From Ectocarpus siliculosus (lineage: Eukaryota > Sar > Phaeophyceae > Ectocarpales > Ectocarpaceae): 64,000 bases of DNA. A model generated the notes under the pieces. It ran no database searches. It saw only the letters and a program-made list of their open reading frames with translations, and was not told the DNA's origin. Shown here in pieces: positions 31,522 through 57,887 of this stretch (positions within the stretch are counted from its first letter, which is position 1; each line of letters starts with the position of its first letter). The stretch covers positions 2,136,638-2,200,637 of the forward strand of contig FN649736.1 of the NCBI GenBank assembly GCA_000310025.1, given 5' to 3'. The position numbers and the translations under genes are program-made.

Positions 31522-34500
31522 GTCGGTCAGCGACGCCGTCGTCATCCGTTTGGAGAAGCACGCAAGCACCGCCTCTTTCGACATGAACTGCGCGGAGACG
31601 CCGAACTTCCCGAACATCATTTCCTGATCGGGGGCCGGGGAGGCAGAGCGGTTACACAGCCGATAGGGGTGATCAGATTGTTGTACATGGAATTATCGTC
31701 AGTGACGAAACTCACCTTCACTTGGATATGCTTTTCTTAGTGGCACGGAGGGCGGGGGGGTACATAGCCGGCGTTGCACATATTCTTGCGATAGGGAAGA
31801 GGGAGGGTGTAGCCGGGGTACATCACCCATCTCTAGTGCTACATTCAACAGGCGGGGGGACGACGTTTAAGATCGGACCGCCCACCCAAGAGGGGCCTCG
31901 GGGAGTCCTTGCGGAGTATGTAGCGAAGGCCAAAATGATGTCGGTCGGGGGCAAAAAAAAAAGAGGTTAGCCTCCTGAGGATGACCTCGAGTCCCCTTCC
32001 CAAGCTGTCACGAGTTATGTGCGACACTAACATAGAGAGTGTTGGTTTCCACACCACGAAATAATCGTTCTCGTTTCGGCGCGGCTCGTGGAAGCCCCCC
32101 GCACTCGCAACCAGCACCCCGACGGGGCATCCAAAGTGTCAGCCGGCCTAAATAGCTCAGCACTGCCTGGACATTGTCGATATGGAACAAACATGGGTCT
32201 GCGCAACGACCCCATGCCAAGGACAAAGTGGTATCAACAATGACAACAACCAACAGCAACAACGACAACAACAACAGCGGCAGCAACAACACCAACAACA
32301 CCAACACCAACAATGACAACCACGCCAACCACACGAACGACTCTGTTGGCGCCCAGCCACAGCAAGCAAGCGGGGTGCTCACCGTGTGCTTCATCCGTTT
32401 CTTAGAAGAGTTGAAAGGCTTCTCCGAGATCAGGACCGGGTGGTCCCACAGCTTCGTCTTGAGTCGAGTCCGCTCAGCGTGTTCTCACACCTTCTTCATC
32501 AGGTCCCAATCCGTCACTGACGCCCGGACAAGGATGAGGAATACATAGCGCGGAAACAGAAGACATGGATGCCGGCGGCGTGCGTGATGTTTCAATGTCT
32601 TCAAACGTTTTCCAGCCGTCGCTGGTTCGCGCCACTGCTGTTACTTCGGCGTCAACAACCGCGTGCTGGCTTTCGACACTGTCCTACGCACAATTTGATT
32701 CGCTTGCATCAAAAGTCGTCGGAGGACGTATGTGTGTCAAGCAATTAAAATCGGTGCTGCCAACCTTGTTGTTGTGCAAGAAGACACATCACACCGCAAG
32801 GAAACGTGATACGCTTGTCGGGGTGCATCGGTACAACCGTTTTGTCACAAAAGAGAAAAGACTCATGCCGTCCGGGCCATGCTGCACAGCCCTCTCACTT
32901 AACTCTCCCTCAGTTTCCACACGGCCCACAGCAATATCCTGGAAACCCCACCAAAGGATGGGTCCTTGCGAGAAATAATAACGAAAGAAGAGCCGCCTCT
33001 CACCGAACCCGTCCTCCATGAGCGGCACTACATCCTTGTCCGCCTCGCCGCCCATCAAGCTATCCACGTGCCATCGATAAACCGTCCTCGCCTCTCCCCC
33101 CTTATTTCTCCTCTCCTTTTTCGGCGCCCCCGTTCTGCTTCCCCTGGGCCCTCTGGCTCCGCTGGCGAAGCTGCGGCCCCCTTGCCTCCCCGCGCGGGCT
33201 GCCCATTGGCGGGATGGGAGGGTGCAGCTTTCTTCTTGCCGCCCCCCGCTCTTGCGGGGCTCCCGGCGCTGTCGGCGGCGGCGGCCATCTCTGTTTCTAA
33301 GCGTCGCGTGGCCTCCAAGTCTACCGTTCTGCCAATCCGCTGTTGTCGGTGGTGTTTCGATGGGGGGGGGGGGGCGTACTCTTATGCTTTGCATGCCTTA
33401 GCGGTTAGACCATTGACCACGCGTCCTCGAGAGGACGGAGCATTGTTCCCACAGGACCGATCACCGATGGTCAATCGTTCCTTCCTACTTTGCCAAAGGT
33501 GGCTCAAAAATGTCTTTCCTAGTCTGTCTATCCTACCGATGTCACTTCCCGCTTTTTCAAACCACTTTCTACTCCCCAGTACCGCTACCGTCCTCTCCTC
33601 TCTATTCCATGCCTCAAACATCTCCCTGTACGTCCCTTGTATTCTTCCCAGCTCAGTCATGTACACTTCCCTCTCCTTTTCGTACCACGGACATTCCGCG
33701 ACTACATGAACACTGTCTTCGCATTCGAAGCCGCAATCGCATTTGAACTTGTCGTCTTCGTCGTCTACCGTCCTATGTCTTCGTCGACGTTCGCGAAGGC
33801 CTATGTCCCCGGTCCTGAATTTGACCTTAAGCTTTGTCCCTGCATCCATTGGTCCATGTAGGTAATCCTTGAACCCTATTCCTTCTTTCAACATTCCGTA
33901 CACTTCTAGACCCTCCTTATCCTTGGTTTCTTTCCTTAGATTCTGTTCTTCTCTCTCGGCACAAGCAACAGATATCTTCTTCTTGAACCCCTGTAGACCC
34001 TCCGTTTCCAGCGTTTCATCTTCGTCGATGTCCAATCCCTTCCATACGTCCTCTACAACCTTGACCCATTCCGTGGGTTGTCTACCCCTCTTTTTGTTTG
34101 CCCACTTCGCCTCCCATACTATTCTCGGCAACCTCTCCTCTCCCATCCCGCACATGCGGTACTGCCATGTCAGCTTCCTTACGTCTCTTCCCGACCGTAG
34201 GGATTGTAGGGATTGTGTTTCGATGGGGGGGCGGAAATACAAGATCTTGGTCATAACCTAGCTACATGTAGAGGGATCCCTTTATGTTGATGCCGGTGTC
34301 CGAGGTATTTTTCTGCATGCTCGAAAGGGGGAAACCTTACAGATACACACAACGGACCGAACGCTAGGCTAGTCTACAGGGACGAGTGAGCGGGGAAAGT
34401 TGGCATGAACGCATCCACCGCGTCACCATCTCCGCACGCCCATTGCGCCTCACTCCCCACCCCTCTCCGAATACGACACGGCGGTGCCCCTCGGTTCACT

Positions 34501-41000: not shown

Positions 41001-42300
41001 CGTGATCAACGAGCATCCGGCAGTATGTCCTTTGACGAACTGGACACGCAGGTTGCGCTCTTTACTGAGAATGCAACTTGACCTCGCTCTATTTTGGCAA
41101 GTCGACGTGCAACAACAACAACAACCACCGTCACTTTCTCCCTGGGTCTTCAGGTATGACCAGGCGTAAAATACAACAAGGAGGACAACGACATGTGGAT
41201 CTCTTGTGCGTCCGAAACCACCGCACACTTACGATGCGCTGAACGGCACTACCTCCTTTGTACGTGCGTTGGTGAGGGGGGGGAGTGGACGTGTGAAGGC
41301 GGCGTGCGCCAGGTGTGTGGTAGAAACCACAAGCGATACAGATAGACTATATGCCATGCGGAGCTAATACTCGCAGTAAACGATACAAAAAACAGCCCCC
41401 CCTCCCTCTCACTTAAATGTAGTGCACACGAACAGGGGTGCTGGTGTGTACATTCGTGGCTGAGATCATCAAACTTTCACTCTTCTTTTCACGCATTACC
41501 TTACGTGGTTGCCTACGGGCCACACACGACTTTCGGACCGAAGCACCCAACGGCTACCGCGAAATGGTGCCGGCCGACTTAAGTCCTCTTGCACAGTTGC
41601 ACAATGTGGGCCATCCCTGCTGCACGCGCCCACTGTCAATAGAGCGGCCACGGCACAAGATACGAGATGCGTCGTGTGCCTACAAAATCACAGAAATGCC
41701 AGAATGGATCACGCAGCTACATGAGTGAATTCTATCCCACTCTCCCCTCTATGTCCCAAGCGACAAACCGGGCCTGATGATGGTACATGTAGTAGATCGC
41801 CACAACTCAAACCATCCCTTTTTCCTCTCTCTCTACCGAAAGGTCCAGAGACTGAATGTTCAAGACAATCGAGGCGACAGCCTGAAAAAGCAAAGAACAC
41901 GAAACAGAGTCTCGAGCTTGAATACCATCTATGAAAACTAGAACACGATCGTAGACCAATCATGTCTTCGTGATATAAACTGCCAGGCCTGCTGGATGCC
42001 TGGGTTGATGACGTGGTCGGTGGTGGTTTTCTGCTCAGCAGCTGGGTCGTTGTGTAGGTCGCTCTTGCTTAGCGGTAGTCACCCTCCATCGGGCGGCACT
42101 GTGATTGAGGGAGGGAGAGAAGATGGCCGGGTGTTAGGGGGGAGAGAGGCTCGATTTGACCGCATTTTCGACTGCAAAACTGGTATTTAATTGCCTTCAC
42201 AAAAAACGGGGGGAAATCCACCCTACGTAGTTGGCTTGTGACCCGTCAGTTGGAGCAGTACGGACATTAGAAGGTACATAGCGGAGACCGGAAAGGTATA
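35020..42300. other. No assured gene; unidentified frames
   Basis: The longest frame here is 37011-37667 (plus, 218 codons), rich in Pro, Arg and Cys and matching nothing I recognise. Neighbouring frames at 36483-36894 start with a basic segment (RRRRAPVAKVKKPKPKP) and show apparent frame changes, as in an old mobile-element remnant. Several pieces elsewhere (38.1, 40.3, 41.5 kb) are open but without splice-consistent partners. The inverted repeat at 38.8-39.7 kb is listed separately. Nothing else is claimed. Confidence 0.4.
38845..39710. repeat. Foldback-like inverted repeat, about 330-base arms
   Basis: The left arm (about 38845-39180) and right arm (about 39365-39710) are reverse complements with scattered differences, around a spacer of about 190 bases. 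Landmarks are GACCTGAGTTCTTGAC against GTCAAGAACTCAGGTC, AGGGAGGTT-like and AGCAACCCTACGCTGAAGGG blocks against CCCTTCAGCGTAGGGTTGCT, and the GAGAGGGGAGGACACCGCAACTGATTT block against its complement. No transposase frame is visible in the spacer. It may be a foldback or MITE-type element, or an inverted duplication. Confidence 0.8.
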
Positions 42301-42310: not shown

Positions 42311-42346
<36 letters not shown>

Positions 42347-42382: not shown

Positions 42383-42712
42383 TCAGCGACCATCTTTTCG
42401 TGACGCACGCCACCGGCATAACTGGTGGGACACCCGAGAGGTTTCCAAGCACCAAAAAAGACAACCAGGCCAGACGAAGAAATGACGCCCGTCCTCTCAC
42501 CTGCGAGTAGCAGGTGCTCTTGCCCATGAAGACGCACTCAAGACCCTCTTCGCAGCAGGTGGAACCGGTCCAGCCGTCGCCACCGCACTGCTCCCACGCT
42601 TCCACAGGCTCGCCCGAGCACTCTCCGGTCGGAGCGGTCGACACAGGGGCGGGGGTGTCCCCGGCGACAGGTGCGGCGGTTTCAGGCGATGGGGTGGGAG
42701 CGGGGAAGTCGC
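42383..42712 (-). other. C-terminal CBM1 (fungal-type cellulose-binding) domain
   Basis: After a PAPTPSPETAAP linker the reading is VEAWEQCGGDGWTGSTCCEE, then CVFMGKSTCYSQ, matching CBM1 (QCGG.GWTG...C....C.....YSQC). The Trp, Phe and Tyr of the flat binding face are present. The last Cys is supplied by the final exon as QLC rather than the usual QC, if the acceptor at 42421 is right. Reading through the donor instead gives QV and no last Cys. Twelve residues after the junction a TGA ends the protein. CBM1 is usual in fungi and oomycetes and is known to bind crystalline cellulose. Confidence 0.8.
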
Positions 42713-44457
42713 CTGCGGGTAGAGTTGGAGCGAAGGTGGAGGAGTCGTGGTAACGAATCAACAGCGAAGGGGCGTAGGGGACGAATGAGAAAAAAGGGTG
42801 CAGAGCGAACGCGGTGGGACACACGTCTGACTCCGTACGCCACCGCTGCACAGCGACAAGCCAGCCGCCAGGCTATTGGTGCAAACCATAAGTACTATTA
42901 TAGACACAATCATCGTTTTCGCCACCCTGCTTACCGCCGATGACACACGGGGCCTCTCCGCACGGCCTGTTGGCGTCGAGGACAGCGGTCTCGCAGCACT
43001 CGTCAGACCCGAGCTCCAGGTCCGAGGCCACCGTCGAGCACCCGTCGCCTCCGCACTGGCCACAGGCCGCGACGCAGCACGCCCCCTTGGAGGTCTCGAT
43101 GCCGGGGACGCCGTTGCTGCACGTGGACGTCGTCGGCATCGACCCCCCCGGGGAGGTGGGCGCGCTCGTGGCTGCCGCCGTGGGCTCCTCGGTCCCGACC
43201 GGCGAGCGAGTCACGGGGGGCGTGGTCGGAGCCTCCCCCGTGGCGGTGGGGGCCATCGTCGGGGTGTCCGGCGAGTCGGTCACCGGAGCTGTGGTGGGGG
43301 CTTCGCCGCCGTTGTCGTACTTGAACAAGCTGTAGGCATCGTATCCACCTTTTTGGGGGGGGAAAAGGTTTTAACAGCGGGGAAGAGGGGATAAAACGGG
43401 GGGGGGGGGGGGGGGGGGGGTGAGGCGATCGGATCGGACTGGTTTGCTCCAGGAAACAAGAACGTGAGAACGACGGGCGGGATGATCAACGCCAAGAGCA
43501 TCGGCTCGGATGAAAAACGGCCGGCGAGTTTCAACGAACAGCTGACCCTCGTCCACCGCGCATTACCAGCAGCAAGAGAACCAAGCGCACTGCTGTGTAC
43601 ACGACACCAAAACCCGACTGGAGCGAACGCACTCACCGCAGGCAACCGTGCCGTCTCCCGAGCAGGCCATGTGGCACACTCCCTCGCCGTGGCGCTCGTA
43701 GTCGGCGTCGTCGTCGCTCGTACCGCACCAGCACTCGCTCGAGAACTGTCATGTCGGGATTGTTTTGGTTCGGTCACACGAGGAGGTACTGACCACATAC
43801 ACCGTCGGGACACCAACGATTTCGCTTGGTGACTCTCGAGGCCCGCGAGAAGGGCACATATTCTGCAGTGATGGGTATATATGTCAGACGAGCTTGCAGA
43901 TAGATCTGTCGGCGCGTGAGTACCAAAACATACGAACATGCAACACACGAACGATGCACGCAAACGTACACACAAGGCACGTCCTTCCCCCATCACATCC
44001 TGTCACGGGGTCCCACATCACATGACGGCCTTAACAAAAACGTTTTCCAGTCTTCGGCCAAACTGAGACTGACGCCTTTTCACTGGCCAGCAGGTACGTA
44101 CATGTAATAGCGTGGTCGATGATTACAGTAAAACACAACACACGGACACACACACACACCTGAGTGTCTTTGATCCAGAGAATCGATTAATTTCCCCCAT
44201 GCCGCCCCCTCACGGGGTCCCAGTCAATGGCATATAGAAGTGTTTCGTGTTTTCAACCGCACTAAGACTGACGTATTTTCGTTGATCAGCCGGTTAGCGC
44301 GGTCGATGCTAATAATAAAGACACACACACACACACTCACACACACACTCACTCACTCATTCACTCACACACACGCACACTGTTTTCAACCGCACTAAGA
44401 CTGACGTCTTTTCATTGGTCAGCCGGTTAGCGCGGTCGATGCTAATAATAAAAACAC

Positions 44458-44493
<36 letters not shown>

Positions 44494-47400
44494 CTGGGTG
44501 CCGTAGTACGGAGCGTCCTTGTCCGCGCAGTGCTCGCGGCAGACCGCCGCGGTCATGTCGTCGCTGGAGATCATGTCCGACAGCACGCGGTCGCCCTTGT
44601 TGTCGGTGTAGCAGCCCACGTACTCCTCGTCCTCCGGCGCGGGGGCCCACGAGAGCCTGTAGAGGTTGAAGCTGTGAACACCGCCGCAGGTCTCACTCTA
44701 TTGGTGAGGAGAATTAATTTATTGAGGAGGGAGGGGGGGAGGGAGGGAGGGGGAGGGGGGGAGGGGTCAGGGCTAGCCTACCAGCAGGGTGGTGGGGGGA
44801 AGAGGGCTCGGGGAGCGGGGTTGCGTGCCCGCGGTCTAGAGGGTTCATTTTGGCCTATTGAGGCAGAAAATAAAAACAAAAGTGCACCGCATGCGCCAAC
44901 ATGTACATGTCGTAGCCGTTGCGAGGTGTCACGTACGTTGTGGCTGGTTGTTGGCCTAGCGTATTCCAGGTCATCGTCGTTAACACTACCTGAAGAGGAA
45001 GTACTACATGGCACCGCACAGGTAAAACACGCACGGTCGGTGGCACGCCACTGAGGAGACCGCCGCCTTTGACCTCATCAGTCAACAGCATCAATATTGC
45101 GCTGCAGAGAAGGGAGGTTTTTGGAGCGCCGTGTCGTCGATGTTGTGCCACCCACCTCGTCGCCTCTGCAGGGGTAGTCGCAGACGCCTGTGTCCCCGTG
45201 GCGGTCGTAGTCCAGGCTGCCGTCCCTCGAGCACCAGCACTCCACTCCCCACTGGGTCGCCATGTAGGCGGCGCCCTTCGTCGAACACGTCTCATAACAC
45301 AACTGCGTATCAGGGAAGGCAGGGAGGGGCAAAGGGCCAACCCCCAAGGGTGAGACAAGCCACAGCAGTAAGGCCAAAGTTTCCCCAACGACGATGTGGC
45401 TTGAAGCGTTCGTTCCAAGCGTTTCCGGTTCCCGTCACAAATAAATGGATTTCGCCGTTTCGCTTTTTGCGGAAGGTTCGAGCACCTCCTCTATACGATC
45501 GATACGTTCACGCACGCCCCGAATACACCTCTCGATGAGATGAAAGACGAAAAAGAAAAACTAACCTCGGCGGTCATGTCGCCGGAGATAAGCCCGCTCC
45601 TCTGCAAGACGCGGTCCGACTGGCTATCTTGGAAGCACCCCACGTGTTCGTAAGCGCCGGGTCTGCCTCCAGGCTCACTTTCGGAGAAGTCGTCCGAGGA
45701 GGAAGAGTCTTTCCGTTCACCATCGTCGGACGGACCCAGTTGGTCGTTATTGGTCGTGGAGAAAAGCATCGGGCGAGAGGGAAGAAGAGAGGGAAAGTGT
45801 GGGAAGCAATAAGTTGAGCCATCTCTGTGTTTGCGCTGACTCAAGTACAGCAGAAGGCCGTGCCTAATTATTTACGTGCGATAACCCGCGAGCGACAGGA
45901 AAAACAACAATGGTATCATGGGATGAGGCAAGTAGTTCCTTGTCCATCGAAAATAGATAACTGGTAGATGCCCCGAGGGCGGTGCCCGTCTGCAATAGTA
46001 AACTGATCTGCGCCGTGCGGGTAGAAGCAACGTGTGCGTTACCAGGTCGTTCCTCCTCCTTCCGCATAACGGCCCAATAACTAGTTACGTATTTTCGCAT
46101 CGCTCCACGCGATTGCAGCGGTGTGCAGCTGGTTTGTTTTTGCCCGCCCGAAAGGTTAGGACACCACTCCCCACAGCAACAGAATGAAAGCTCTCTCACC
46201 ACCAGAGGCGGGCTCGGCAGTGGGGGCCATGACGGGCTCAGCAGTCGGAGCCATCACCGGCTCAGCAGTCGGGGCCATGACGGGCTCAGCAGTCGGAGCC
46301 ATCACCGGTTCAGCAGTCGGTGCCATGACGGGCTCGGGAGTCGGACCCATCGCCGGCATTTCGGTGGCGGGTGCTGCGGTAGGTTCCGGCGTCGTTTCTG
46401 CATTGAAAGAGGATAGAGCGGCGCGATACACACTACGTCAGGGGCAGGAAGAACCATCCGTGTGACCACAAACAAACAGTGACGCGTGACGCGAGCTTGC
46501 CGGATGTGTGTCAGGACGACACGAAGGTGGGCGCCTTCAGCAGCGCAAGAGCAATGAACCTTACAGCACAGCACTAGTTTTCTCGCGACCTTGCTTGATA
46601 AACAATTGTGAGATCCCGCCCCCAGTGACAACCACAAAATCAACAGGGCGGCGTTGTCATCACGCACCGTCGAGGACACAAGGGGCTTCTTCCGACACGC
46701 TGCACGAGACTCCGGTGGAACGCACGCCCGACTGGCAGCAGGACTCGGCCCCGTAGTCGGGACGGCCCACGGTGGAGCATCCCTCGCCGCCGCACTGCTT
46801 GCAGCCGACCGGGCAACAGACGGCGCCGTCGGAGGACTCGATTCCGCGGATGCCGGTGCTGCAAACAACGACTGGTTGGGGTCGGGGTCGGTGGTGGGGT
46901 TTAGGGTGCGGGTACGGTTAGGGGTTGGGGTGAGGGGAGTCGTGGGTGGCTGTTGTGGTCGGGAAAGGCAGCATATACCCCTAAAAACGGACGGCAGGGC
47001 TTCTGCTACCGGACTGACCAAAAAACGCCCCGACACAGCCGAGACGACGAGACCACCTTCCACAAGGAAGCGCGTCTACTCTCGTCGTCGTGTCATAAAC
47101 TGCTGTACACGGCGCGTTTGCTCGCCCGAACAAAACCGACATCATGATCGACAACCAAGCGCGGTTTCTCACCCTCGTCGGTGGGAGCCATCACCGGCAT
47201 TTCCGAAGGCGCTGGTGGTGCGTCTACCGGGGAAGGCGTGGGAGTGTCTGCCGGAGCTGGCGTGGGGTCGTCGACCGGTGCAGCCGACGGGGGGTCTACC
47301 GGAGCAGCCGTGGGTGGGTCTACCGGAGCAGGCGTCGGCGGGTCTACCGGAGCTGGCGTGGGAGGGTCTACCGGAGCCGGCGTAGGTGGGTCGACCGGGG

Positions 47401-50400
47401 CAGGCGTGGGAGGGTCGACCGGTGCAGGCGTCGCGGGTCTCTCCGTGGGCATAACAACGGGCATTTCTGTCGTGGCCGGGGTCGGTGGCGGCGCTGAGCC
47501 GTCTGGATAAAACAGTGGGAGGCAGGCGAGCGGGGTGTGTAAGACAGGATGCGTTGGCCGCTTCCGATATGAAGCGCCATTGTTCCTATTCCTGATGTAA
47601 GGGACGTGCCGGCAGAGCCAGCAACGGATGGCTGTTCAGTTCGGAACAGGCAGTGAGTGGTGTGTACAAAATGGACCCACAGCCGTTCGCAGCGGGTCAC
47701 AGCAGGAAGAGTTCGTCGTCTCGGGGCGGGCACATGTGCTGAACGAAATTTTCACAGCAACAGCAGCAGCAACGATGCGAACACCAACCTGGAGGAGCGG
47801 CGGCCCCGCGAGGGAGGGGGCACCGGTACATCGCACCATACAAGGGGGAGGGCCCAAATGACTTGAGACCCACGTGCGGATGGATGTTTGCGACTAGGCT
47901 GGCTATCTAGTCTAGTCAGACGGAAAAGCAAAAACAAGCAAGCCCCAAAAAATGAAAAAAAAGGCCTCCCTCACTGTCGACGTAGCAGGGCGCCGCGAGG
48001 GCTGTCGAGCAGAGCTCGCCGTACTCCTCGATTCGGACCGCGCAGCAGTTGTCCTCGCCCAGGCCGCCGCCGAACTCGGCGCAGCCGAAGCCGCCGCACG
48101 CCTCGCACTCCGCATGACAGCACGAATCGCCGGACTGGATGCCCGGGAAGCCGTTGGAGCACACTTCGCGGTAGGGGGGGAACAGACACGTGTACGAACG
48201 ACGGGGGGGGGTGGCAAGACTGGGGGTTGAGCCAGAAAATCCCGCCGACAGCAGTTCAGAGACTTTCATTCGTCGAGAACGGGGTGCATTGTCCACAAGC
48301 GAGGGCGCAGAAGGGCGTGTGTGGCCCAGTTATTGAGTGCCTCGTGGTACACTATGGTGATATGCGCACAGACCAGGTACAAGCGTTTGGACAATGAAGT
48401 CACTATCTCGTTGGTCGACACGTACCAAAAGGTTTTCTACCGTGGTGTGTGAAGCTAGTTGCTTCCTCCCAAAAGGCTAGGCTAGGGTACCCTCGCTCCC
48501 AAAAGGCTAGGACAGGATACCCTCCCTCCCAAAAGGCTAGGCTAGGTTACCCTCCCTCCCAAAAGGCTAGGATAGGGTACCCTCCCTCCCAAAAGGCTAG
48601 GCTAGGGTACCGCCCCCACAGAGACAGGCTTACAACGACACCACTCACCGTCACCAGTGGGCTCAGAGACGGGCTCGGCAGTGGGGGCCATGACGGGCTC
48701 GGGAGTCGGAGCCATCGCCGGTTCAGCAGTCGGTGCCATGACGGGCTCGGGAGTCGGACCCATCGCCGGCATTTCGGTGGCGGGTGCTACGGTCGGCTCG
48801 GGCGTTTCTAGCATGAGCAAGGACGAGGAAACAGGGAAGAACGTGGCATACGTATGATGTCTGGGACCGAAAGAAAAAGCCATCCGTGTGACCCCCGAGG
48901 TACAAATACGGTGACGTCATGCGAGAACTTTCCGCGCCCTCATCTTGATTTTCCCGTCGGGAGCACCAAAACATTGACCGCCGCGAAAAGAGACGGGGGG
49001 GAAACAATATTCGAGAAAGCATTTGAAGATTTTTTCATTCGTGCTCCGCTAAGCAACAAGTCGCCAGACCTGGCTCTCGTCTCTGTACACGCCATAGCCC
49101 CAGCGGCAACCCACAACACCGCCGAATGAAAGAGCCGGGAACGAGAAAACTGGGAGACGTCAGAAATAACATTCGGGCAACATGCAAGCACGATTGACTC
49201 ACCGTCTTCGTCATCGTACCAGAACGAGAACGAGAAAGACATGGAGGGCGAAGGGGTCTCGGTGGGCGAAAGTACGTCTGCGTGTTTGGGCGGAAACAAG
49301 CGGGGGCAGCGGGGAGAAGTTGCATGAGTATCAGCAGAGGGGCAGAGCAGAGGCGGAGGGCGAGGGACACCGGGGAAAAAAAGGGCGCGAGATGAGGCAA
49401 CACAAGGCGTTCGTGAGAGAGGGCATTGTTGGACGAGTCGTTGTTCGTGTGGCGACCACGGTGGATTGCACGATTGGTTTACTTGTTGTTGGAGGTGACG
49501 GAAAAGAAGGTTCGACAACTCAAGCCGATGGTACCGCACGTTGGCGCTGAGCTAGCGGACGGGCTTCTTCTCTTCGTCTAATTTGGCGCTTGTTCTCCCA
49601 AATCAACACCCTTCGGGGGAAAAAGCTGATGAAAAGAAACACAAAAGAATCACGGCAAGAGGAACACGTGGAGGATGAAGAGGGCTGCGTTGTCAAGACG
49701 CACCGTCGAGGACACAGGGGGCTTCTTCCGACACGCTGCACGACACTCCGGCAGATTGAACGTCCAACTCGCAGCAGGACTCGGCGCCGTATTCGGGCAG
49801 GCCCACGGTGGAGCATCCCTCGCCGCCGCACTGCGTGCAGTTGATTGGGCAACAGACGGTGCCGTCGGAGGACTCGATTCCGGGGATGCCGGTGCTGCAC
49901 ACAATGACTGGATGGGGTCGTGGGTAGGGTAGGGTGGGGTGGGGTGGGGTCAGGGTTTGGGTTGGGGTGAGGGGTGTCGTGAGGACAAACTAAATAGGGG
50001 GCTCGATGCCAGAGAAAATGCTGCCGTCGTGTGTGATGGTTGTGGTGGAGAATGGCAGCATCCGGAAAGGGACGAGCAAAACCACCATGGCAAAAAAAAG
50101 TGAAGAAACATTTCGGATACAAAAGAAGAGTGGTGAGAGAGGAAAATGAAGGCGCAGCAGCGTGTACGCAGGGAAACGAAATGAACGGACATTGGCAAAT
50201 GAATATCGTGAGACTTGCACCCAGTGATTGTGAAGCAAGAAGTGACCGCGAAGGACGCGTAACTTTCAGGGCATCTCCTAACCGCCGGCCAAGTATCCGA
50301 CAAAGCCGAAAAGAGGAGATCGCTTCAAATGGAAGTGCGTTGAATCTGGTCGTCGTATCGTACAATAAGCGTACATCACTCGCCTGAGCAAACGCGACAT

Positions 50401-53400
50401 CTACATCGACAATCATGAGCTTCTCACCCTCATCAGTGGGGGCCATCACCGGCATTTCCGAGGGCGCCGGCGGGTCCACTGGAGCTGGTGTGGGAGGGTC
50501 TACCGGAGCTGGCGTGGGAGGGTCGACCGGAGCTGGCGTGGGAGGGTCGACCGGTGCAGGCGTCGCGGGTCTCTCCGTGGGCATAACAACGGGCATTTCT
50601 GTCGTGGCCGGGGTCGGTGGCGGCGCTGAGCCGTCTGGATAAAACAGTGGGAGGCAGGCGAGCGGGGTGTGTAAGACAGGATGCGTTGGCCGCTTCCGAT
50701 ATGAAGCGCCATTGTTCCTATTCCTGATGTAAGGGACGTGCCGGCAGAGCCAGCAACGGATGGCTGTTCAGTTCGGAACAGGCAGTGAGTGGTGTGTACA
50801 AAATGGACCCACAGCCGTTCGCAGCGGGTCACAGCAGGAAGAGTTCGTCGTCTCGGGGCGGGCACATGTGCTGAACGAAATTTTCACAGCAACAGCAGCA
50901 GCAACGATGCGAACACCAACCTGGAGGAGCGGCGGCCCCGCGAGGGAGGGGGCACCGGTACATCGCACCATACAAGGGGGAGGGCCCAAATGACTTGAGA
51001 CCCACGTGCGGATGGATGTTTGCGACTAGGCTGGCTATCTAGTCTAGTCAGACGGAAAAGCAAAAACAAGCAAGCCCCAAAAAATGAAAAAAAAGGCCTC
51101 CCTCACCGTCGACGTAGCAGGGCGCCGCGAGGGCTGTCGAGCAGAGCTCGCCGTACTCCTCGATTCGGACCGCGCAGCAGTTGTCCTCGCCCAGGCCGCC
51201 GCCGAACTCGGCGCAGCCGAAGCCGCCGCACGCCTCACACTCCGCATGACAGCACGAATCGCCGGACTGGATGCCCGGGAAGCCGTTGGAGCACACTTCG
51301 CGGTAGGGGGGGAACAGACACGTGTACGACCGACGGGGGGGGAGGGGCAAGACTGGGGGTTGAGCCAGAAAATCCCGCCGACAGCAGTTCAGAGACTTTC
51401 ATTCGTCGAGAACGGGGTGCATTGTCCACAAGCGAGGGCGCAGAAGGGCGTGTGTGGCCCAGTTATTGAGTGCCTCGTGGTACACTATGGTGATATGCGC
51501 ATCAACAAGGTACAAGCGTTTGGACAATGAAGTCACTATCTCGTCGGTCGACACGTACAAAAAGGTTTTCTACCGTGGTGTGTGAAGCTAGTTGCTTCCT
51601 CCCAAAAGGCTAGGCTAGGGTACCCTCCCTCCCAAAAGGCTAGGCTAGGTTACCCTCCCTCCCAAAAGGCTAGGCTAGGTTACCCTCCCTCCCAAAAGGC
51701 TAGGATAGGGTACCCTCCCTCCCAAAAGGCTAGGCTAGGGTACCGCCCCCACAGAGACAGGTTTACAACGACACCACTCACCGTCACCAGTGGGCTCAGA
51801 GACGGGCTCGGCAGTGGGGGCCATGACGGGCTCGGGAGTCGCAGCCATCGCCGGCATTTCGGTGGCGGGTGCTGCGGTCGGCTCGGGCGTTTCTAGCATG
51901 AGCAAGGACGAGGAAACAGGGAAGAACGTGGCATACGTATGATGTCAGGGACCGAAAGAAAAAGCCATCCGTGTGACCCCCGAGGTACAAATACGGTGAC
52001 GTCATGCGAGAACTTTCCGCGCCCTCATCTTGATTCTCCCGTCGGGAGCACCAAAACATTGACCGCCGCGAAAAGAGACGGGGGGGAAACAATATTCGAG
52101 AAAGCATTTGAAGATTTTTTCATTCGTGCTCCGCTAAGCAACAAGTCGCCAGACCTGGCTCTCGTCTCTGTACACGCCATAGCCCCAGCGGCAACCCACA
52201 ACACCGCCGAATGAAAGAGCCGGGAACGAGAAAACTGGGAGACGTCAGAAATAACATTCGGGCAACATGCAAGCACGATTGACTCACCGTCGTCGTCATC
52301 GTACCAGAACGAGAACGAGAACGAGAAAGACATGGAGGGCGAAGGGGTCTCGGTGGGCGAAAGTACGTCTGCGTGTTTGGGCGGAAACAAGCGGGGGCAG
52401 CGGGGAGAAGTTGCATGAGTATCAGCAGAGGGGCAGAGCAGAGGCGGAGGGCGAGGGACACCGGGGAAAAAAAGGGCGCGAGATGAGGCAACACAAGGCG
52501 TTCGTGAGAGAGGGCATTGTTGGACGAGTCGTTGTTCGTGTGGCGACCACGGTGGATTGCACGATTGGTTTACTTGTTGTTGGAGGTGACGGAAAAGAAG
52601 GTTCGACAACTCAAGCCGATGGTACCGCACGTTGGCGCTGAGCTAGCGGACGGGCTTCTTCTCTTCGTCTAATTTGGCGCTTGTTCTCCCAAATCAACAC
52701 CCTTCGGGGGAAAAAGCTGATGAAAAGAAACACAAAAGAATCACGGCAAGAGGAACACGTGGAGGATGAAGAGGGCTGCGTTGTCATGACGCACCGTCGA
52801 GGACACAGGGGGCTTCTTCCGACACGCTGCACGACACTCCGGCAGATTGAACGTCCAACTCGCAGCAGGACTCGGCGCCGTATTCGGGCAGGCCCACGGT
52901 GGAGCATCCCTCGCCGCCGCACTGCGTGCAGTTGATTGGGCAACAGACGGTGCCGTCGGAGGACTCGATTCCGGGGATGCCGGTGCTGCACACAATGACT
53001 GGATGGGGTCGTGGGTAGGGTAGGGTGGGGTGGGGTGGGGTCAGGGTTTGGGTTGGGGTGAGGGGTGTCGTGAGGACAAACTAAATAGGGGGCTCGATGC
53101 CAGAGAAAATGCTGCCGTCGTGTGTGATGGTTGTGGTGGAGAATGGCAGCATCCGGAAAGGGACGAGCAAAACCACCATGGCAAAAAAAAGTGAAGAAAC
53201 ATTTCGGATACGAAAGAAGAGTGGTGAGAGAGGAAAATGAAGGCGCAGCAGCGTGTACGCAGGGAAACGAAATGAACGGACATTGGCAAATGAATATCGT
53301 GAGACTTGCACCCAGTGATTGTGAAGCAAGAAGTGACCGCGAAGGACGCGTAACTTTCAGGGCATCTCCTAACCGCCGGCCAAGTATCCGACAAAGCCGA

Positions 53401-56400
53401 AAAGAGGAGATCGCTTCAAATGGAAGTGCGTTGTATCTGGTCGTCGTATCGTACAATAAGCGTACATCACTCGCCTGAGCAAACGCGACATCTACATCGA
53501 CAACCATGAGCTTCTCACCCTCATCAGTGGGGGCCATCACCGGCATTTCCGAGGGCGCCGGCGGGTCCACTGGAGCTGGCGTGGGAGAGTCTACCGGGGC
53601 TGGCGTGGGGTCGTCGACCGGAGCTGGCGTGGAGGGATCGACCGGCGCTGGCGTCGGCGGGTCTACCGGCGCAGGCGTCGGCGGGTCTACCGGAGCTGGT
53701 GTGGGAGGGTCTACCGGAGCTGGCGTGGGAGGGTCGACCGGAGCTGGCGTGGGAGGGTCGACCGGAGCTGGCGTGGGAGCGGCTACCGGAACTGGCGTCG
53801 TAGGCGTCGTGTACGGGGTCGGTGGCGGCGCTGACCCGTCTGAGGAAAGGCGGAGGAAGGCGGAGGCAGGCGAGAGGCGGGTTGGGCGGCGTAGGTGGGT
53901 ATGACAACATGCGTACTGCAGGAGATGCCTTTGTCTCCCGGTTCCCTAGATGTATTGTTGTGAAGTTCGGGGAAGGCCCGAGCCTTAGTTAGAAGAAAAC
54001 GACATTGTGATTTTTTCCTCGGGAAGAATTGTTTTTATCATTGATGCGGCATCGTTGGTCAGCAGTACATCCGTGACATGGTCAACATCTGCCGTGAAGT
54101 TATGAGCTTGTTGGGGGCGGGCGGATAGTAGCACGGTAGTAAAGGGGGAAGGGGTAAAGAGGAAGGGACAAGACTGGAATGAACAGGCCAAAAGCAGTGA
54201 GTATGGCAGAGATACCGATTGGTCGTCGACAGTACAGTAGAACGCTCTTCTGTATGGTTCACTTCACGGGTCGTCAATTTCCCACAAAAACCGGCGTAAA
54301 TGGTTCGGCATAAACAAGCGCGCCCCTTCGTTCACAAAAAAAAAACGCAAACAACTGTAAGAGCTCACCGGACGTGAGGGAGATGTCGGAGCACGCCCAG
54401 AACTCTTCCGGGTAGGCCCCTTCCTCGCCGCAGATGTAGCGGTTGAGCTCGATCCAGTCCGACTTGTTGGGGGCGCAGGTGCTAGGCCACGAGGGAGGGT
54501 CGAACTCGTCGTACCCGATGTGCTTGCACGAGTTTCCGGTGTCTTGAAACAACACATTGTGGACAATCGTGTTTCAGGGGGGGGCGAGCAAGCGTAAGGG
54601 CCGGGGTGGTCGTGGGTATTGGGTGAACGCCGAGTAGTACAACACATGCATGCGTCTTCCGAAGTAGGAGTTGCCAAGCGTTGCATGGGAAATGATAGAA
54701 GGTTAAAAGACGTTACGGAAAATCTTGGGGTTTCTTCGAGATTTGCTGAGGGGGTAAGAGCTGTGGGAGAAGCGGGCTAACGACTCTCCGGGTTTTCGGT
54801 TTCATACGCTCTCGGTTTCATACGCTCGTACGCATGGGGAAGCGATGACGAGAGAAAGCTTAAACGAAACAGCGAGGAGCGCGTTTCGGTAGAACTATGT
54901 TCTGCACCGGTTAGAAATCCCGGAAAAAGACTACGCACGCATCCATCGGCAAACGCGTACACTCAAAACTATTTCACTACTTAATCCAACTCGACGACAG
55001 CGACATGCGCGTTGCGCGCACCCTGTCAATAGTCGGCGCGACTGAATAACTGAACCTGAAAAAAAAAAGAAACACTGAAAGAAACTCGGCGGAAATGAGA
55101 GCAGTGGCACACTCAACAGTACACCATCTGCAAGACACAGCGGTCGCACTCGATGTCCGGGAGCACGTAGCGCATCTTGATGTTGTAGCCCTTGGGTGCC
55201 CCCTCGGGCGAGCCCTGTTCTGTCTCCCCCGCGCGGCACTCTGGGTCCACGTAGTAGCGGCCCGGGTAGTTGGGGTCGATCGGACTGGCGTCGCCGTCGT
55301 CTGCGGCGCGGGTTAGCGGGTACCGGTTGAAGCACTCCTGGGTGGGCACGCCGTCCGGGTCGTCCATCTCGTCCGCGTTGCACAAGAAGAACTCGCAGTG
55401 TCCCTACAGATCGCGGACGCGAGGCACGTTTAGTGGGGAGAAAAAGTAACGTTGGTGTTGGTGGGGGGGGGGGCGGACTGCGGCCGGCCACGAGTGAGTG
55501 CGCTCCGGAACGCCTACAACATTAAATAAAAATGATGCTGGATAATAGGAGTACTTCGAAGTAGAGTGTTGCGTTATCAAACATTATATTCATTCAGCGT
55601 TAATTTAACCGTTGTACAGACCACAACGGCTCTCGCTCGTTGCCGTTGAAGTCCTCTTGACCCAAACGCTTACCGTTGTTGTACAGACTACTGCTGCTTC
55701 AACTATCTACGACCCGGTGGAGGGGGCGAGGATGGGAATACTACTAATATGTTGGATTCACTGAAACTACCCCAACCAAAATACAAAAAAGTTCGGATGA
55801 CTGGATGCTTTATTGTTGAGCAGACGACGACACAAGACGATAAGACCAACTTGATACCGGGCAATGGCACTTTTGTAGAAATAATTGACCAACCAGTAGA
55901 CCAACAACTGTTTTTCATCAGAGTTCGAAACTTCGCACTAACACATGGTAGTTCGCATGCACATATCACCACCAAGTACCCGTAGTGGCGCCATCAATAT
56001 TTAGATCCCCTCTGTGCCTCGCGATAGGACAAGTGGGTGGTAGAGAAAACGGAAACTGCTGTGGACTACGACGAATAAATGTGGAGATATGCATACAGAT
56101 TTACAGATGCATATACCGGTACATAGTCCTTGAAATCCGCTCCAACGGTTATATCCTTTTCACGAACAGAAATCTGACTTAGACTAGAGAGATAGGGCGA
56201 TAGGCACCCGCTTTTTGAGTCCGTGATTCGATTTTCATGGTAGGAATTCACTGATACACCTGCATTGCCGACCGCCGAAGAAAGGGAACCCTACTCAGCG
56301 TGAAAACATCGCCGGTTGCCTCGCTGCGGGTTGAGACTTGATCCTCCTCTCACGTGCTCACATGCTCAGCAGCAAAGCTTGCATGGCATGTGTAGTCTAT

Positions 56401-57887
56401 CTAGTGAGAGGAGGTTCGTTGCGCTGAAACGCGCTATTGGGGGGCTGAATGAATATTCAATCAACCCCATGGCAACAAACGACTACGATTTCTTCGAGCT
56501 CTACATTATTAGACGTGGATCCCCGTAATGATGGATTCCAACGCTGGGGCAATGACGGCAGTGGACAAAAAAGCACTTCCAAAATCTCCGCGTTCGTCGG
56601 AAATGCAATGGAATGAAATGCCTGTCTACATGTCTACATGTGCTTCGTTCGAGTATTCACAACAAAGATAAAGTATCATAGTCTATGTGTGTATGTGTGT
56701 GTGGAGCAGCCGTAGTCCCGCCGATTTCAACCTTTCACAATGTACGCAAATGTAGGATCTCAGCTGCAACGTGTGACAAGGGGCTCACCCAGTGGTAGGC
56801 GTTCATGATTATGTCCATCTCAAGGACCTCTCCGCTCTTGAACGAACCGAGGACATCCCATCCGATGTTGGCGGTGCTGTAGACGTTGCTTCCTTCATCC
56901 GCGTTCTGCGCATACGACATAAAGTTTGGGATGTGAAACAAACCCAGCACTCATCATGCGTATATAAGTTCACACAACAATATCAATGCTCTCGTAGCAA
57001 CCACCTCTTGTGCTGAGAGGAACCGACGACAATTTCGGGCACCTGCTCCGGGTCGCCGCAGATGCCGTGGCGTTTCGCGATCTCGTCCGTCTCGAGGTAG
57101 TTACCGTTGTCGGCAAAATCGCCGAAGTATAGGGGGTACTCGTCCCCTCCCCCATACTCGTTCAGGACGGCAGGATCCGTCTTGGCTTTGGCTCGCTCCT
57201 TAACGTAGTCAGGCCCGCGTGCATTGTAGCAATGCGGGCAGTAGTCGATTCCCGGGAAGTCCCTATGTACGTACAGCAAGAGGGCGGGGGCCGGGTGCGT
57301 GAGGCCTCCCACGTGAGGTGCAGGCAGGCAACTGCTTGGATCTTGACGATCTTGCCTCGCACAAGCACTACGTTGTACTATGGTATACACAAGTCTGCAG
57401 GGGCGTTCGGAGTTGTTGTTTCGTTCACACATCCGAGCGTAAATGAACGCGACGAAGCGTGCGCATCTCGCATTGCTGGTGGTCGTGCCGTTAGAGCGTC
57501 ACATACGAGGAGTGGTGCTTAGAACAACGCCCTCAACTTTGGAGAAAAGCCAGCAGAACAGCCAAAGCTTCCAAACCAAAAAAACAGCAGTCTATCGTGC
57601 AAGCTTGTACAATATCTTGATGAAAAAACAACCACGGAAAACGGCCGTGGTGAGGTACAGAGTAGTAGTGAAGCAACGCCGCTCGCTCGCTGCTGTGTGC
57701 AGACAGAAAGACACGCACAAGCCACAGCGAGAGGGCTCCACACACGCACTTACCATTCTTTGAATACGGGGCCATAGCTGTACTGGCGGGAGATGGGATA
57801 CATCTGCATGATGTGACCGTGAGCATGATTTGCCAGTAGAGTTGCTGCGGCTACAGCCGCGGCAAAGGCAGAGGAGCGCTGAATCAT
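42383..57887 (-). CDS. Secreted LPMO-WSC-CBM1 mosaic protein, 25 exons
   Basis: Exons: 57754-57887, 57043-57262, 56789-56905, 55118-55403, 54369-54542, 53519-53839, 52795-52998, 52288-52368, 51782-51892, 51107-51295, 50428-50634, 49704-49907, 49203-49277, 48649-48807, 47975-48163, 47173-47502, 46668-46871, 46200-46397, 45566-45708, 45156-45302, 44494-44697, 43637-43745, 42935-43348, 42501-42712, 42383-42421. Every junction is GT..AG and every phase agrees; the sum is 4,671 bases, 1,556 residues plus TGA. Order: signal peptide, LPMO-type copper oxygenase (about residues 23-309), Pro-rich linkers alternating with five Cys modules, two WSC domains (about 1158-1350), a sixth Cys module, and CBM1 at the C-terminus. 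It should act outside the cell on wall polysaccharide, with CBM1 suggesting cellulose; the true substrate is unknown. Least certain: the last 39-base exon and the acceptor at 45708. There is no membrane anchor. Confidence 0.85.
43397..43421. repeat. Poly(G) run
   Basis: A G run of more than 20 bases in the short intron between exons 22 and 23 of the LPMO gene. Similar C or G runs occur at 16897-16912 and 61500-61513. Tracts of this kind carry the retroelement copies elsewhere in the window. Confidence 0.95.
43637..45708 (-). other. Two WSC domains (exons 19-23)
   Basis: WSC1 runs from YEHVGCFQD (exon 45566-45708) through LCYETC and the ECWCS motif (exon 45156-45302) to ETCGG (exon 44494-44697). 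WSC2 runs from YVGCYTD (same exon) through CREHC and ECWCG (exon 43637-43745) to ACGGYDAYSLFKY at the start of exon 42935-43348. Both keep the Cys pattern and the CWC core of WSC domains, which bind carbohydrate in wall sensors and in algal wall-active enzymes. Exon boundaries fall at the same place inside each WSC (after MTAE or after YYGTQ). Confidence 0.85.
44035..44495. repeat. Intronic repeats with (AC)n tracts
   Basis: Three diverged units of CACTAAGACTGACGT, then GGTCAGCCGGTTAGCGCGGTCGATG, each followed by an AC-rich tract. They fill the intron between exons 21 and 22 of the LPMO gene and run into the donor at 44493. That donor, GTGTGTGTG, is itself part of the AC tract. Confidence 0.85.
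48461..48612. repeat. Intronic minisatellite, unit about 31 bases (copy A)
   Basis: Five units of CTCCCAAAAGGCTAGGCTAG plus GGTACCCTCC, with single-base variants. The counterpart in copy B of the gene duplication is at 51594-51745. They lie in the introns between exons 14-15 and 9-10. Confidence 0.95.
51594..51745. repeat. Intronic minisatellite, unit about 31 bases (copy B)
   Basis: Same unit and copy number as the array at 48461-48612, with a slightly different pattern of variants. The two arrays have begun to diverge since the duplication. Confidence 0.95.
54369..57887 (-). other. LPMO catalytic domain (exons 1-5)
   Basis: The precursor starts MIQRSSAFAAAVAAATLLAN; removal of the signal peptide would expose HGHIMQMYPISRQY. 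His23 (HG start) is the expected first copper ligand, though cleavage two residues later would expose His25. Exons 3 and 4 join exactly within NAYHW-GHCEFFLC, whose His156 matches the second ligand of the family (compare the H-x-G-x-F-E-F motif of AA15/AA10-type enzymes, PF03067). The domain ends PEEFWACSDISL, the conserved [EQ]EF..C[AS]D[IV] strand, putting Phe300 at the axial position usually held by Tyr or Phe. CPHCYN, CGDPEQ and TGNSC supply further Cys. Family-level assignment is confident; assignment to a CAZy AA number is tentative, with AA15 or a sister family most likely. Confidence 0.85.
55420..56780. other. Intron 3 of the LPMO gene, no nested gene seen
   Basis: Both strands hold only short frames without domains. 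The intron is much longer than its neighbours (about 1.4 kb) and AT-richer in its middle (55500-56700). Confidence 0.5.

What the first reader, a model, noticed from the sequence alone, without database searches (positions are those of the whole stretch)
42383..57887. A copper oxygenase fused to WSC, CBM1 and serial Cys modules in one secreted protein
Twenty-five exons join in consistent phase to 1,556 residues: signal peptide, HG-starting LPMO domain with both His ligands and the EFWACSD strand, repeated Pro-rich linkers and Cys modules, two WSC domains and CBM1. LPMOs with one CBM are common in fungi and bacteria. I know of no described enzyme with this combination, and it would be a candidate cellulose- or wall-active oxidase in an alga.
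Basis: partly seen in the sequence, partly recalled or inferred. Interest (0 to 1): 0.88.

Follow-up and report, generated by a model that had tools for sequence, protein, structure and literature searches.

The report
Multi-module copper oxygenase of an alga
A probable brown alga encodes a secreted copper enzyme of a known polysaccharide-cutting family whose gene appears to have picked up, exon by exon, a row of cysteine-rich repeats, two WSC domains and a cellulose-binding tail, which hints that the alga may use such enzymes on its own cell wall.

Summary
The fusion is well supported by sequence. On the minus strand 23 exons (57887-42069) join into one 1,501-residue frame: signal peptide, LPMO_10 (AA15-like) domain, five Cys modules between Pro-rich linkers, two WSC domains, a sixth Cys module and CBM1. 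The best evidence is 17 further LPMO loci in the same genome: all 23 CBM1 matches found lie downstream of an LPMO on the same strand (13 loci); one locus (L039, possibly proviral) has LPMO and CBM1 in a single ORF; the sister locus (L022) models as LPMO-WSC-CBM1 with matching exons. Against it, exons 6-16 here are a phase-1 cassette between LPMO and WSC, related to a Cys-repeat/WSC array on contig C4 and enlarged by a 3.1-kb tandem duplication. Corrections: mature His1 is H25 (HIMQMYPISR, not HG); 23 exons, not 25; end at 42069. AA15-CBM1 and AA15-WSC fusions are in print, so this is a new variant of a known kind. Likely role: oxidative remodelling of the alga's own cellulose or matrix. Expression, fold and activity are untested.

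The parts
57754..57887 (-). Exon 1: signal peptide (aa 1-24) and start of mature LPMO at H25 (HIMQMYPISR)
57043..57262 (-). Exon 2: LPMO domain, aa 45-118
56789..56905 (-). Exon 3: LPMO domain, aa 119-157, with second copper His H156 (AYHWGH)
55118..55403 (-). Exon 4: LPMO domain, aa 158-253
54369..54542 (-). Exon 5: LPMO C-terminal part (EEFWACSD; F300 presumed axial residue); phase-1 exit
53519..53839 (-). Exon 6: Pro-rich linker A1 (41% Pro)
52795..52998 (-). Exon 7: Cys module I, copy 1 (10 Cys)
51782..51892 (-). Exon 8: Pro-rich linker B1
51107..51295 (-). Exon 9: Cys module II, copy 1 (10 Cys)
50428..50634 (-). Exon 10: Pro-rich linker A2
49704..49907 (-). Exon 11: Cys module I, copy 2 (67 whole codons identical in DNA to exon 7)
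48649..48807 (-). Exon 12: Pro-rich linker B2
47975..48163 (-). Exon 13: Cys module II, copy 2 (1 nt different from exon 9 over 62 codons)
47173..47502 (-). Exon 14: Pro-rich linker A3
46668..46871 (-). Exon 15: Cys module I, copy 3 (diverged, 81% aa identity to copy 1)
46200..46397 (-). Exon 16: Pro-rich linker B3
45566..45708 (-). Exon 17: first part of WSC domain 1; weak AAG acceptor, also AAG in L022
45156..45302 (-). Exon 18: second part of WSC domain 1
44494..44697 (-). Exon 19: end of WSC 1 and first part of WSC 2
43637..43745 (-). Exon 20: second part of WSC 2
42935..43348 (-). Exon 21: end of WSC 2, linker and Cys module III in one exon
42501..42712 (-). Exon 22: linker and CBM1 (aa 1422-1492)
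42069..42098 (-). Exon 23: CRPMEGDYR and stop; closes CBM1
47668..53650 (-). Tandem duplication, unit about 3.1 kb (most of exons 6-9, and exons 10-13); 97% identical in introns

Best explanation
One gene of a family of 18 AA15-like LPMO loci in a (probable) brown alga encodes a secreted monocopper oxygenase that is held in the cell wall. Shown by sequence: an LPMO domain with His1 (H25), His2 (H156) and a conserved Phe (F300), followed by linkers and Cys modules, WSC domains and CBM1 in one frame. The commonest plan in this genome is LPMO plus CBM1, in some loci with WSC between; the Cys-module/linker block here looks like a later phase-1 exon cassette, related to an array on contig C4 and enlarged by tandem duplication. 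Inferred: CBM1 (cellulose) and WSC (matrix glycan) hold the enzyme at cellulose microfibrils, the Pro-rich linkers and disulfide-rich modules act as a long spacer, and the copper site nicks crystalline chains oxidatively to loosen or remodel the alga's own wall.
For: Gene model in register over 22 introns, 15 of 22 phase 1. Pfam matches over cut-off. PDB: the only match listed is AA15 of Thermobia (5msz), E 8.5e-7 for the single sequence (limit E 1) and 1.3e-11 for the profile (limit E 10). H1, H132 and F276 (mature numbering) invariant in 9 of 9 aligned rows. 23 of 23 CBM1 matches found, all over cut-off, lie downstream of an LPMO on the same strand, in 13 loci. L039: LPMO and CBM1 in one ORF, 369 aa from its ATG. 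L022: WSC end and CBM1 in one exon; LPMO last exon 174 nt, exit phase 1, then a WSC exon homologous to window exon 17; its joined protein passes the cut-offs of all three families. Window/L022 LPMO dN 0.153, dS 0.555 over 284 codons. C4 array: 24 CysII-like modules at 65-79% identity, one CysI-like at 73%, one WSC, Pro-rich linkers between.
Against: No transcript or protein evidence; all spliced models, the paralogs' included, are mine. No structure could be predicted. Similarity to the one solved AA15 is weak (31.8 bits), and the part holding the presumed axial residue aligns at only 0.5 bits. L039, the splice-free witness, is diverged and may be proviral, so it bears on the family rather than on this gene. 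The L032 model is poor. 5 of 18 LPMO loci have no CBM1 match. Substrate is not shown: a characterised oomycete AA15 is chitin-active and insect AA15s act on chitin and cellulose (PMC8393829, PMC5823890, passages read). Exon 17's acceptor is weak; exon 23 is backed by one paralog. In CBM1 the residue before the last Tyr is Cys; that an aromatic usually stands there is recalled.
Confidence: 0.62

Rival explanations
1. Same fused enzyme, but the target is not the alga's own cellulose: chitin or other glycans of grazers, epiphytes or pathogens (defence), or a matrix polysaccharide such as mixed-linkage glucan.
For: AaAA15A of an oomycete is chitin-active and the AA15 family acts on chitin and cellulose (passages). 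The four C456 loci have WSC but no CBM1 match. The intronless copy in L039 lies beside thaumatin-like and nuclease-like ORFs.
Against: CBM1 in 13 of 18 LPMO loci and in no other place found at this sensitivity; CBM1 is called cellulose-specific in those papers.
Confidence: 0.25
2. Two or more neighbouring genes: an LPMO gene at 54.4-57.9 kb and a Cys/WSC/CBM1 gene at 42-54 kb.
For: No transcript data; CBM1 lies 11.8 kb from the last LPMO exon, against 0.1-3.5 kb in the 12 other CBM1 loci.
Against: LPMO and CBM1 share one ORF in L039; WSC and CBM1 share an exon in L022; WSC 2 and Cys module III share exon 21 here; phase stays in register over 22 introns; the same order recurs in L022 and L032.
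Confidence: 0.05
3. The Cys array is partly an assembly artefact (false duplication of the 3.1-kb unit).
For: Units 1 and 2 are about 97% identical in introns, and Cys module I copies 1 and 2 are identical over 67 codons.
Against: Linker A lengths differ (exon 6 321 nt, exon 10 207 nt, exon 14 330 nt) and unit 3 is clearly diverged (61-66% in introns).
Confidence: 0.08
4. A catalytically silent wall structural protein that keeps the LPMO fold as a binding module.
For: Weak similarity to characterised AA15; the module array resembles a structural repeat protein.
Against: Presumed copper ligands and axial Phe invariant in 9 of 9 aligned rows; dN/dS about 0.28 against L022.
Confidence: 0.08

Closest known systems
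AA15 LPMOs with CBM1 (oomycetes; the AA15 family paper lists Phaeophyceae members)
   Same: LPMO_10 domain with His brace, secreted, CBM1 downstream (passages of PMC5823890 and PMC8393829)
   Different: The passages read name no WSC domain or repeated Cys-module array for them; mature domain here is 286 residues up to the linker, the 5msz chain has 201
AA15-WSC multimodular LPMOs (PMC8615602)
   Same: AA15 catalytic domain with WSC downstream; AA15 C-terminal regions rich in Cys and partly disordered
   Different: The passage names WSC only in a list; no combination with CBM1 and a repeated Cys module is described in the passages read
X473/X474 Cys-rich C-terminal domains of Aphanomyces AA15 (PMC8393829)
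   Same: Cys-rich modules of unknown function C-terminal to AA15
   Different: Those have 6 or 4 conserved Cys and under 40 residues; the modules here have 10 Cys in about 62-67 residues. Not compared by sequence
Cys-repeat/WSC array on contig C4 of the same genome
   Same: Same Cys module II (65-79%) and module I (73%), similar linkers, WSC downstream
   Different: No LPMO match or CBM1 match there; not modelled as a gene

Membership tests
LPMO (PF03067 / LPMO_10) | Match to the family profile above curated cut-off over its length | tested here: met
   52.1 bits, cut-off 23, profile 1-183 of 183, on the exon-joined domain; exon by exon the genome search with this family found only the intronless C16 locus
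LPMO (PF03067 / LPMO_10) | His brace: N-terminal His after signal peptide and a second His | tested here: met
   H25 and H156 conserved by alignment; geometry not seen
AA15 | Closest to characterised AA15 rather than other LPMO families | tested here: met
   Only PDB match at E<=10 with the profile is AA15 5msz
AA15 | Placement inside the AA15 clade in a tree with other families | not tested
   No set of CAZy sequences at hand
AA15 | Copper-dependent oxidation of chitin or cellulose | not testable with these tools
   Needs enzyme assay
AA15 | LPMO fold with copper site | not tested
   The exon-joined domain was not sent to the fold service
CBM1 (PF00734) | Match over cut-off and closing Cys | tested here: met
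   40.5 bits, cut-off 20.6, profile 1-25 of 29; YSQC after exon 23
WSC (PF01822) | Two matches, family over cut-off | tested here: met
   113.6 bits, 2 stretches, cut-off 27.8
Known domain family for the Cys modules | Match to a Pfam family or solved structure | tested here: not met
   Pfam: nothing above cut-off for modules I, II and III; PDB: none at E<=10 with the profile

The most novel reading that the evidence does not exclude
A wall-tethered LPMO with a tunable spacer: brown algae have taken AA15 oxygenases into endogenous cellulose remodelling, and this one has captured an extensible Cys-module/Pro-linker array from a structural wall protein, so that tandem duplication can change how far the copper site reaches from its CBM1/WSC anchors: a new, length-variable class of matrix oxygenase.
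Probability: 0.3. Interest if true: 0.78.

Novelty: new variant of a known kind. Interest (0 to 1): 0.56.

Why it matters
How brown algae loosen and rebuild a wall of cellulose fibrils in an alginate/fucan gel is, as far as I recall, poorly understood. A family of 18 LPMO loci that holds all 23 CBM1 matches found in the genome makes endogenous oxidative cellulose remodelling directly testable; a paper gives one to five AA15 copies for most algae (PMC8393829, passage), so this would be an expansion. The gene also looks like recent exon shuffling by phase-1 cassettes between wall-type proteins.

Tried and rejected
Separate-genes reading: rejected on the paralog evidence. My first last exon (42393-42352, MVAEISASTNEGQ) was replaced once the sister locus showed a conserved CRP- exon; a pattern for such an exon matched 1 of 11 CBM1 loci scanned (L022) and not the other 10, while L039 ends YAQCLP* without an intron. 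HG as mature start: rejected. A GC donor after exon 20 that I guessed was a misreading; the donor is GT. A match to PF00537 (scorpion-toxin-like), 16.3 bits against cut-off 21.5, inside WSC, and to PF19070 (11.8 against 27.4) and PF04625 (10.7 against 29.2) were set aside as below cut-off. Viral relatives of the LPMO domain and of Cys module III: none confirmed among 29 and 13 pattern matches. Prokaryotic relatives of the Cys modules: none confirmed among 321 pattern matches. PDB match for the Cys modules: none at E<=10. NCBIfam: only below-cut-off matches, LPMO-like 27.2 bits against 75 and one of 11.1 against 154.45. dN/dS by YN00 failed (math error) for all three pairs tried; NG86 is used. 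In one search the N-terminal residues of many paralog models are spurious micro-exons (L033 with 3 stops there); residues before query position 52 were left out of the tree, and His1 was judged instead. CBM1 control: the family search also rang below cut-off in 2 of 14 control genomes, over it in 0. Structure prediction of the Cys module (alignment A2) was not obtained: the machine was busy at 12 tries.
Full report
Gene model. The region was read on the minus strand with GT-AG splice sites. The final model has 23 exons from 57887 to 42069, a CDS of 4,506 nt and 1,501 residues, no internal stop, 22 of 22 introns GT-AG (chosen so) and 15 of 22 in phase 1. Order: signal peptide; LPMO (aa 25-310); linker A, Cys I, linker B, Cys II; the same four again; linker A, Cys I, linker B; WSC; WSC; linker and Cys III; linker and CBM1. 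It has 96 Cys, and the six main linkers have 35% Pro over 440 residues. Pfam gives LPMO_10, WSC (two stretches) and CBM_1 above cut-off. Outside these exons the window gave no module match better than E 0.2.

Corrections. N-terminal exons were picked out in 13 of 17 other LPMO loci by a pattern that asks for a hydrophobic stretch and H...P...R; each gives H-x5-P after the stretch, e.g. A|HIMQKYPMSRQ, G|HVYMMTPISRQ, S|HLYMAQPVSRQ, so His1 is H25 here. In L032, L033, L034 and L038 none was picked out. The last exon was recognised by comparison with L022 and provides the final Cys of CBM1; support comes from that one paralog.

The family. The genome (189.5 Mb, 492 contigs) gave 68 exon-level matches to the LPMO domain (71 of 71 candidates scored, E<=0.1). 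I grouped them into the window gene and 17 other loci; one (C75) is a fragment near a contig end, and L025+L026 is taken as one gene across a 7-kb intron. The regions were fetched and mapped with the window's modules: LPMO with one to three CBM1 in L023, L024, L025+26, L027-L031, L033, L039; LPMO-WSC-CBM1 in L022 and L032; LPMO-WSC without CBM1 in L034-L037; LPMO fragment with a weak WSC match in L038. The 23 CBM1 matches (42 of 42 candidates scored, E<=1) all lie on the same strand and downstream of an LPMO last exon, 23 of 23, in 13 loci. No Cys-module match at E<=0.05 was seen in the fetched regions of the other 17 loci.

Spliced alignment of 16 paralogs (L038 left out): intron positions of the LPMO domain with phases 0, 0, 1 recur in 9 (L022-L031), 6 have extra introns (L032-L037), and in L039 the domain lies in one exon. 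The second His, read by eye, is present in 16 of 16. Nearest is L022 (78% over the mature domain; tree of 17 rows, smallest starred set of four rows). NG86 for that pair: dN 0.153, dS 0.555.

Why one gene. L039 encodes LPMO and CBM1 in a single ORF with no splicing needed, though it may be of viral origin. In L022 the WSC end and CBM1 lie in one exon. L022's LPMO last exon has the same length (174 nt) and exit phase as window exon 5 and is followed by a WSC exon that matches window exon 17, both with an AAG acceptor. Window exon 21 itself joins WSC and Cys III. So the window gene is the L022 plan with exons 6-16 put in between, plus a second WSC and Cys III. The L032 model has several doubtful pieces.

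Origin of the insert. Cys module III has 121 matches in the genome at E<=0.01 (150 of 151 candidates scored), six of them in this gene. For module I (92 matches at E<=1e-5, 150 of 155 candidates scored) the closest outside copy is at C4:5416297, 72%; the others are at or below 56%. C4:5.395-5.440 Mb holds 24 CysII-like modules at 65-79% identity, one CysI-like at 73%, seven weaker or partial and one WSC; of 25 linker-like stretches there, 10 start GSAP as linker A does after its first residue (low-complexity matches, weak by themselves). The C4 array was not modelled as a gene. All 11 inserted exons are phase 1 at both ends, as exon shuffling needs. Units 1 and 2, with borders set by me, are 96.8% identical in introns and 95.4% in exons; unit 3 is more diverged (61-66% in introns).

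Relation to known LPMOs. The only PDB match is AA15 of Thermobia domestica. The alignment puts H156 on a His of 5msz; a further stretch that puts EEFWACSD on EEYRNCAD scores 0.5 bits only. That these are its ligand and axial residue is recalled. Papers: PMC5823890 (passages read) reports AA15 in Phaeophyceae, oomycetes and others and fusions with CBM1, CBM14, GH18 and GH19. PMC8393829 (passages) reports oomycete AA15-CBM1, chitin activity, Cys-rich tails X473/X474, and one to five AA15 copies in most algae, oomycetes and invertebrates. PMC8615602 (passages) reports AA15 with WSC. The main text of PMC11468063, a paper on brown algal wall polysaccharide genes, has no occurrence of 'lytic polysaccharide', 'AA15' or 'WSC'. 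PMC8307928 (passages) names WSC proteins among brown algal wall proteins. Searches on LPMO or AA15 with brown algae, Ectocarpus or WSC (the longer lists were shown in part, judged by titles and abstract openings) showed no paper on brown algal LPMO function; this holds for the held open-access library only.

Mechanism, step by step. Secretion: signal peptide, sequence-based. Copper site: ligands conserved, geometry not seen. Anchoring on cellulose by CBM1 and on matrix by WSC: inferred from the families. Spacer role of Cys array and linkers: inferred. Oxidative nicking of the alga's own cellulose: inferred, about 0.6; another glycan target is the main rival.

Limits. No transcripts, no structure, no other brown algal genome, organism unnamed. 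The brown-alga call rests on the EsV_1_7_cys expansion and recall.

Noticed in passing
L040-L044 (C4:5395001-5445000): Minus-strand array of at least 25 Cys modules alternating with Pro-rich linkers and followed by a WSC domain: perhaps one giant repeat gene, probable relative of the insert; not modelled.
   Followed up: partly
L039 (C16:4491500-4497500): Intronless LPMO-CBM1 ORF beside intronless SNase-like and thaumatin-like ORFs and a 401-aa ORF without Pfam match; dense, so possibly an integrated large DNA virus. Described only.
   Followed up: partly
L034-L037 (C456:906-954 kb): Four neighbouring LPMO-WSC loci without CBM1 match; in three of them the mature start reads HGF.
   Followed up: partly
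window 42936-43124, 46669-46869, 47976-48161, 49705-49905, 51108-51293, 52796-52996 (minus): Ten-Cys module without Pfam match over cut-off or PDB match, with 121 matches in the genome: an unnamed domain family.
   Followed up: partly
window 48465-48611 and 51598-51744: 30-bp tandem repeat (4.9 copies each) inside introns of both duplicate units.
   Followed up: no
window 33385-34257 (minus): Open frame with a Cys/His pattern like the tail of a retrotransposon polymerase (recalled, not searched).
   Followed up: no
window 42311-42346 and 44321-44493: Simple repeats (ACA)n in intron 22 and (AC)n in intron 19; the donor of exon 19 abuts the (GT)n run of the minus strand.
   Followed up: no
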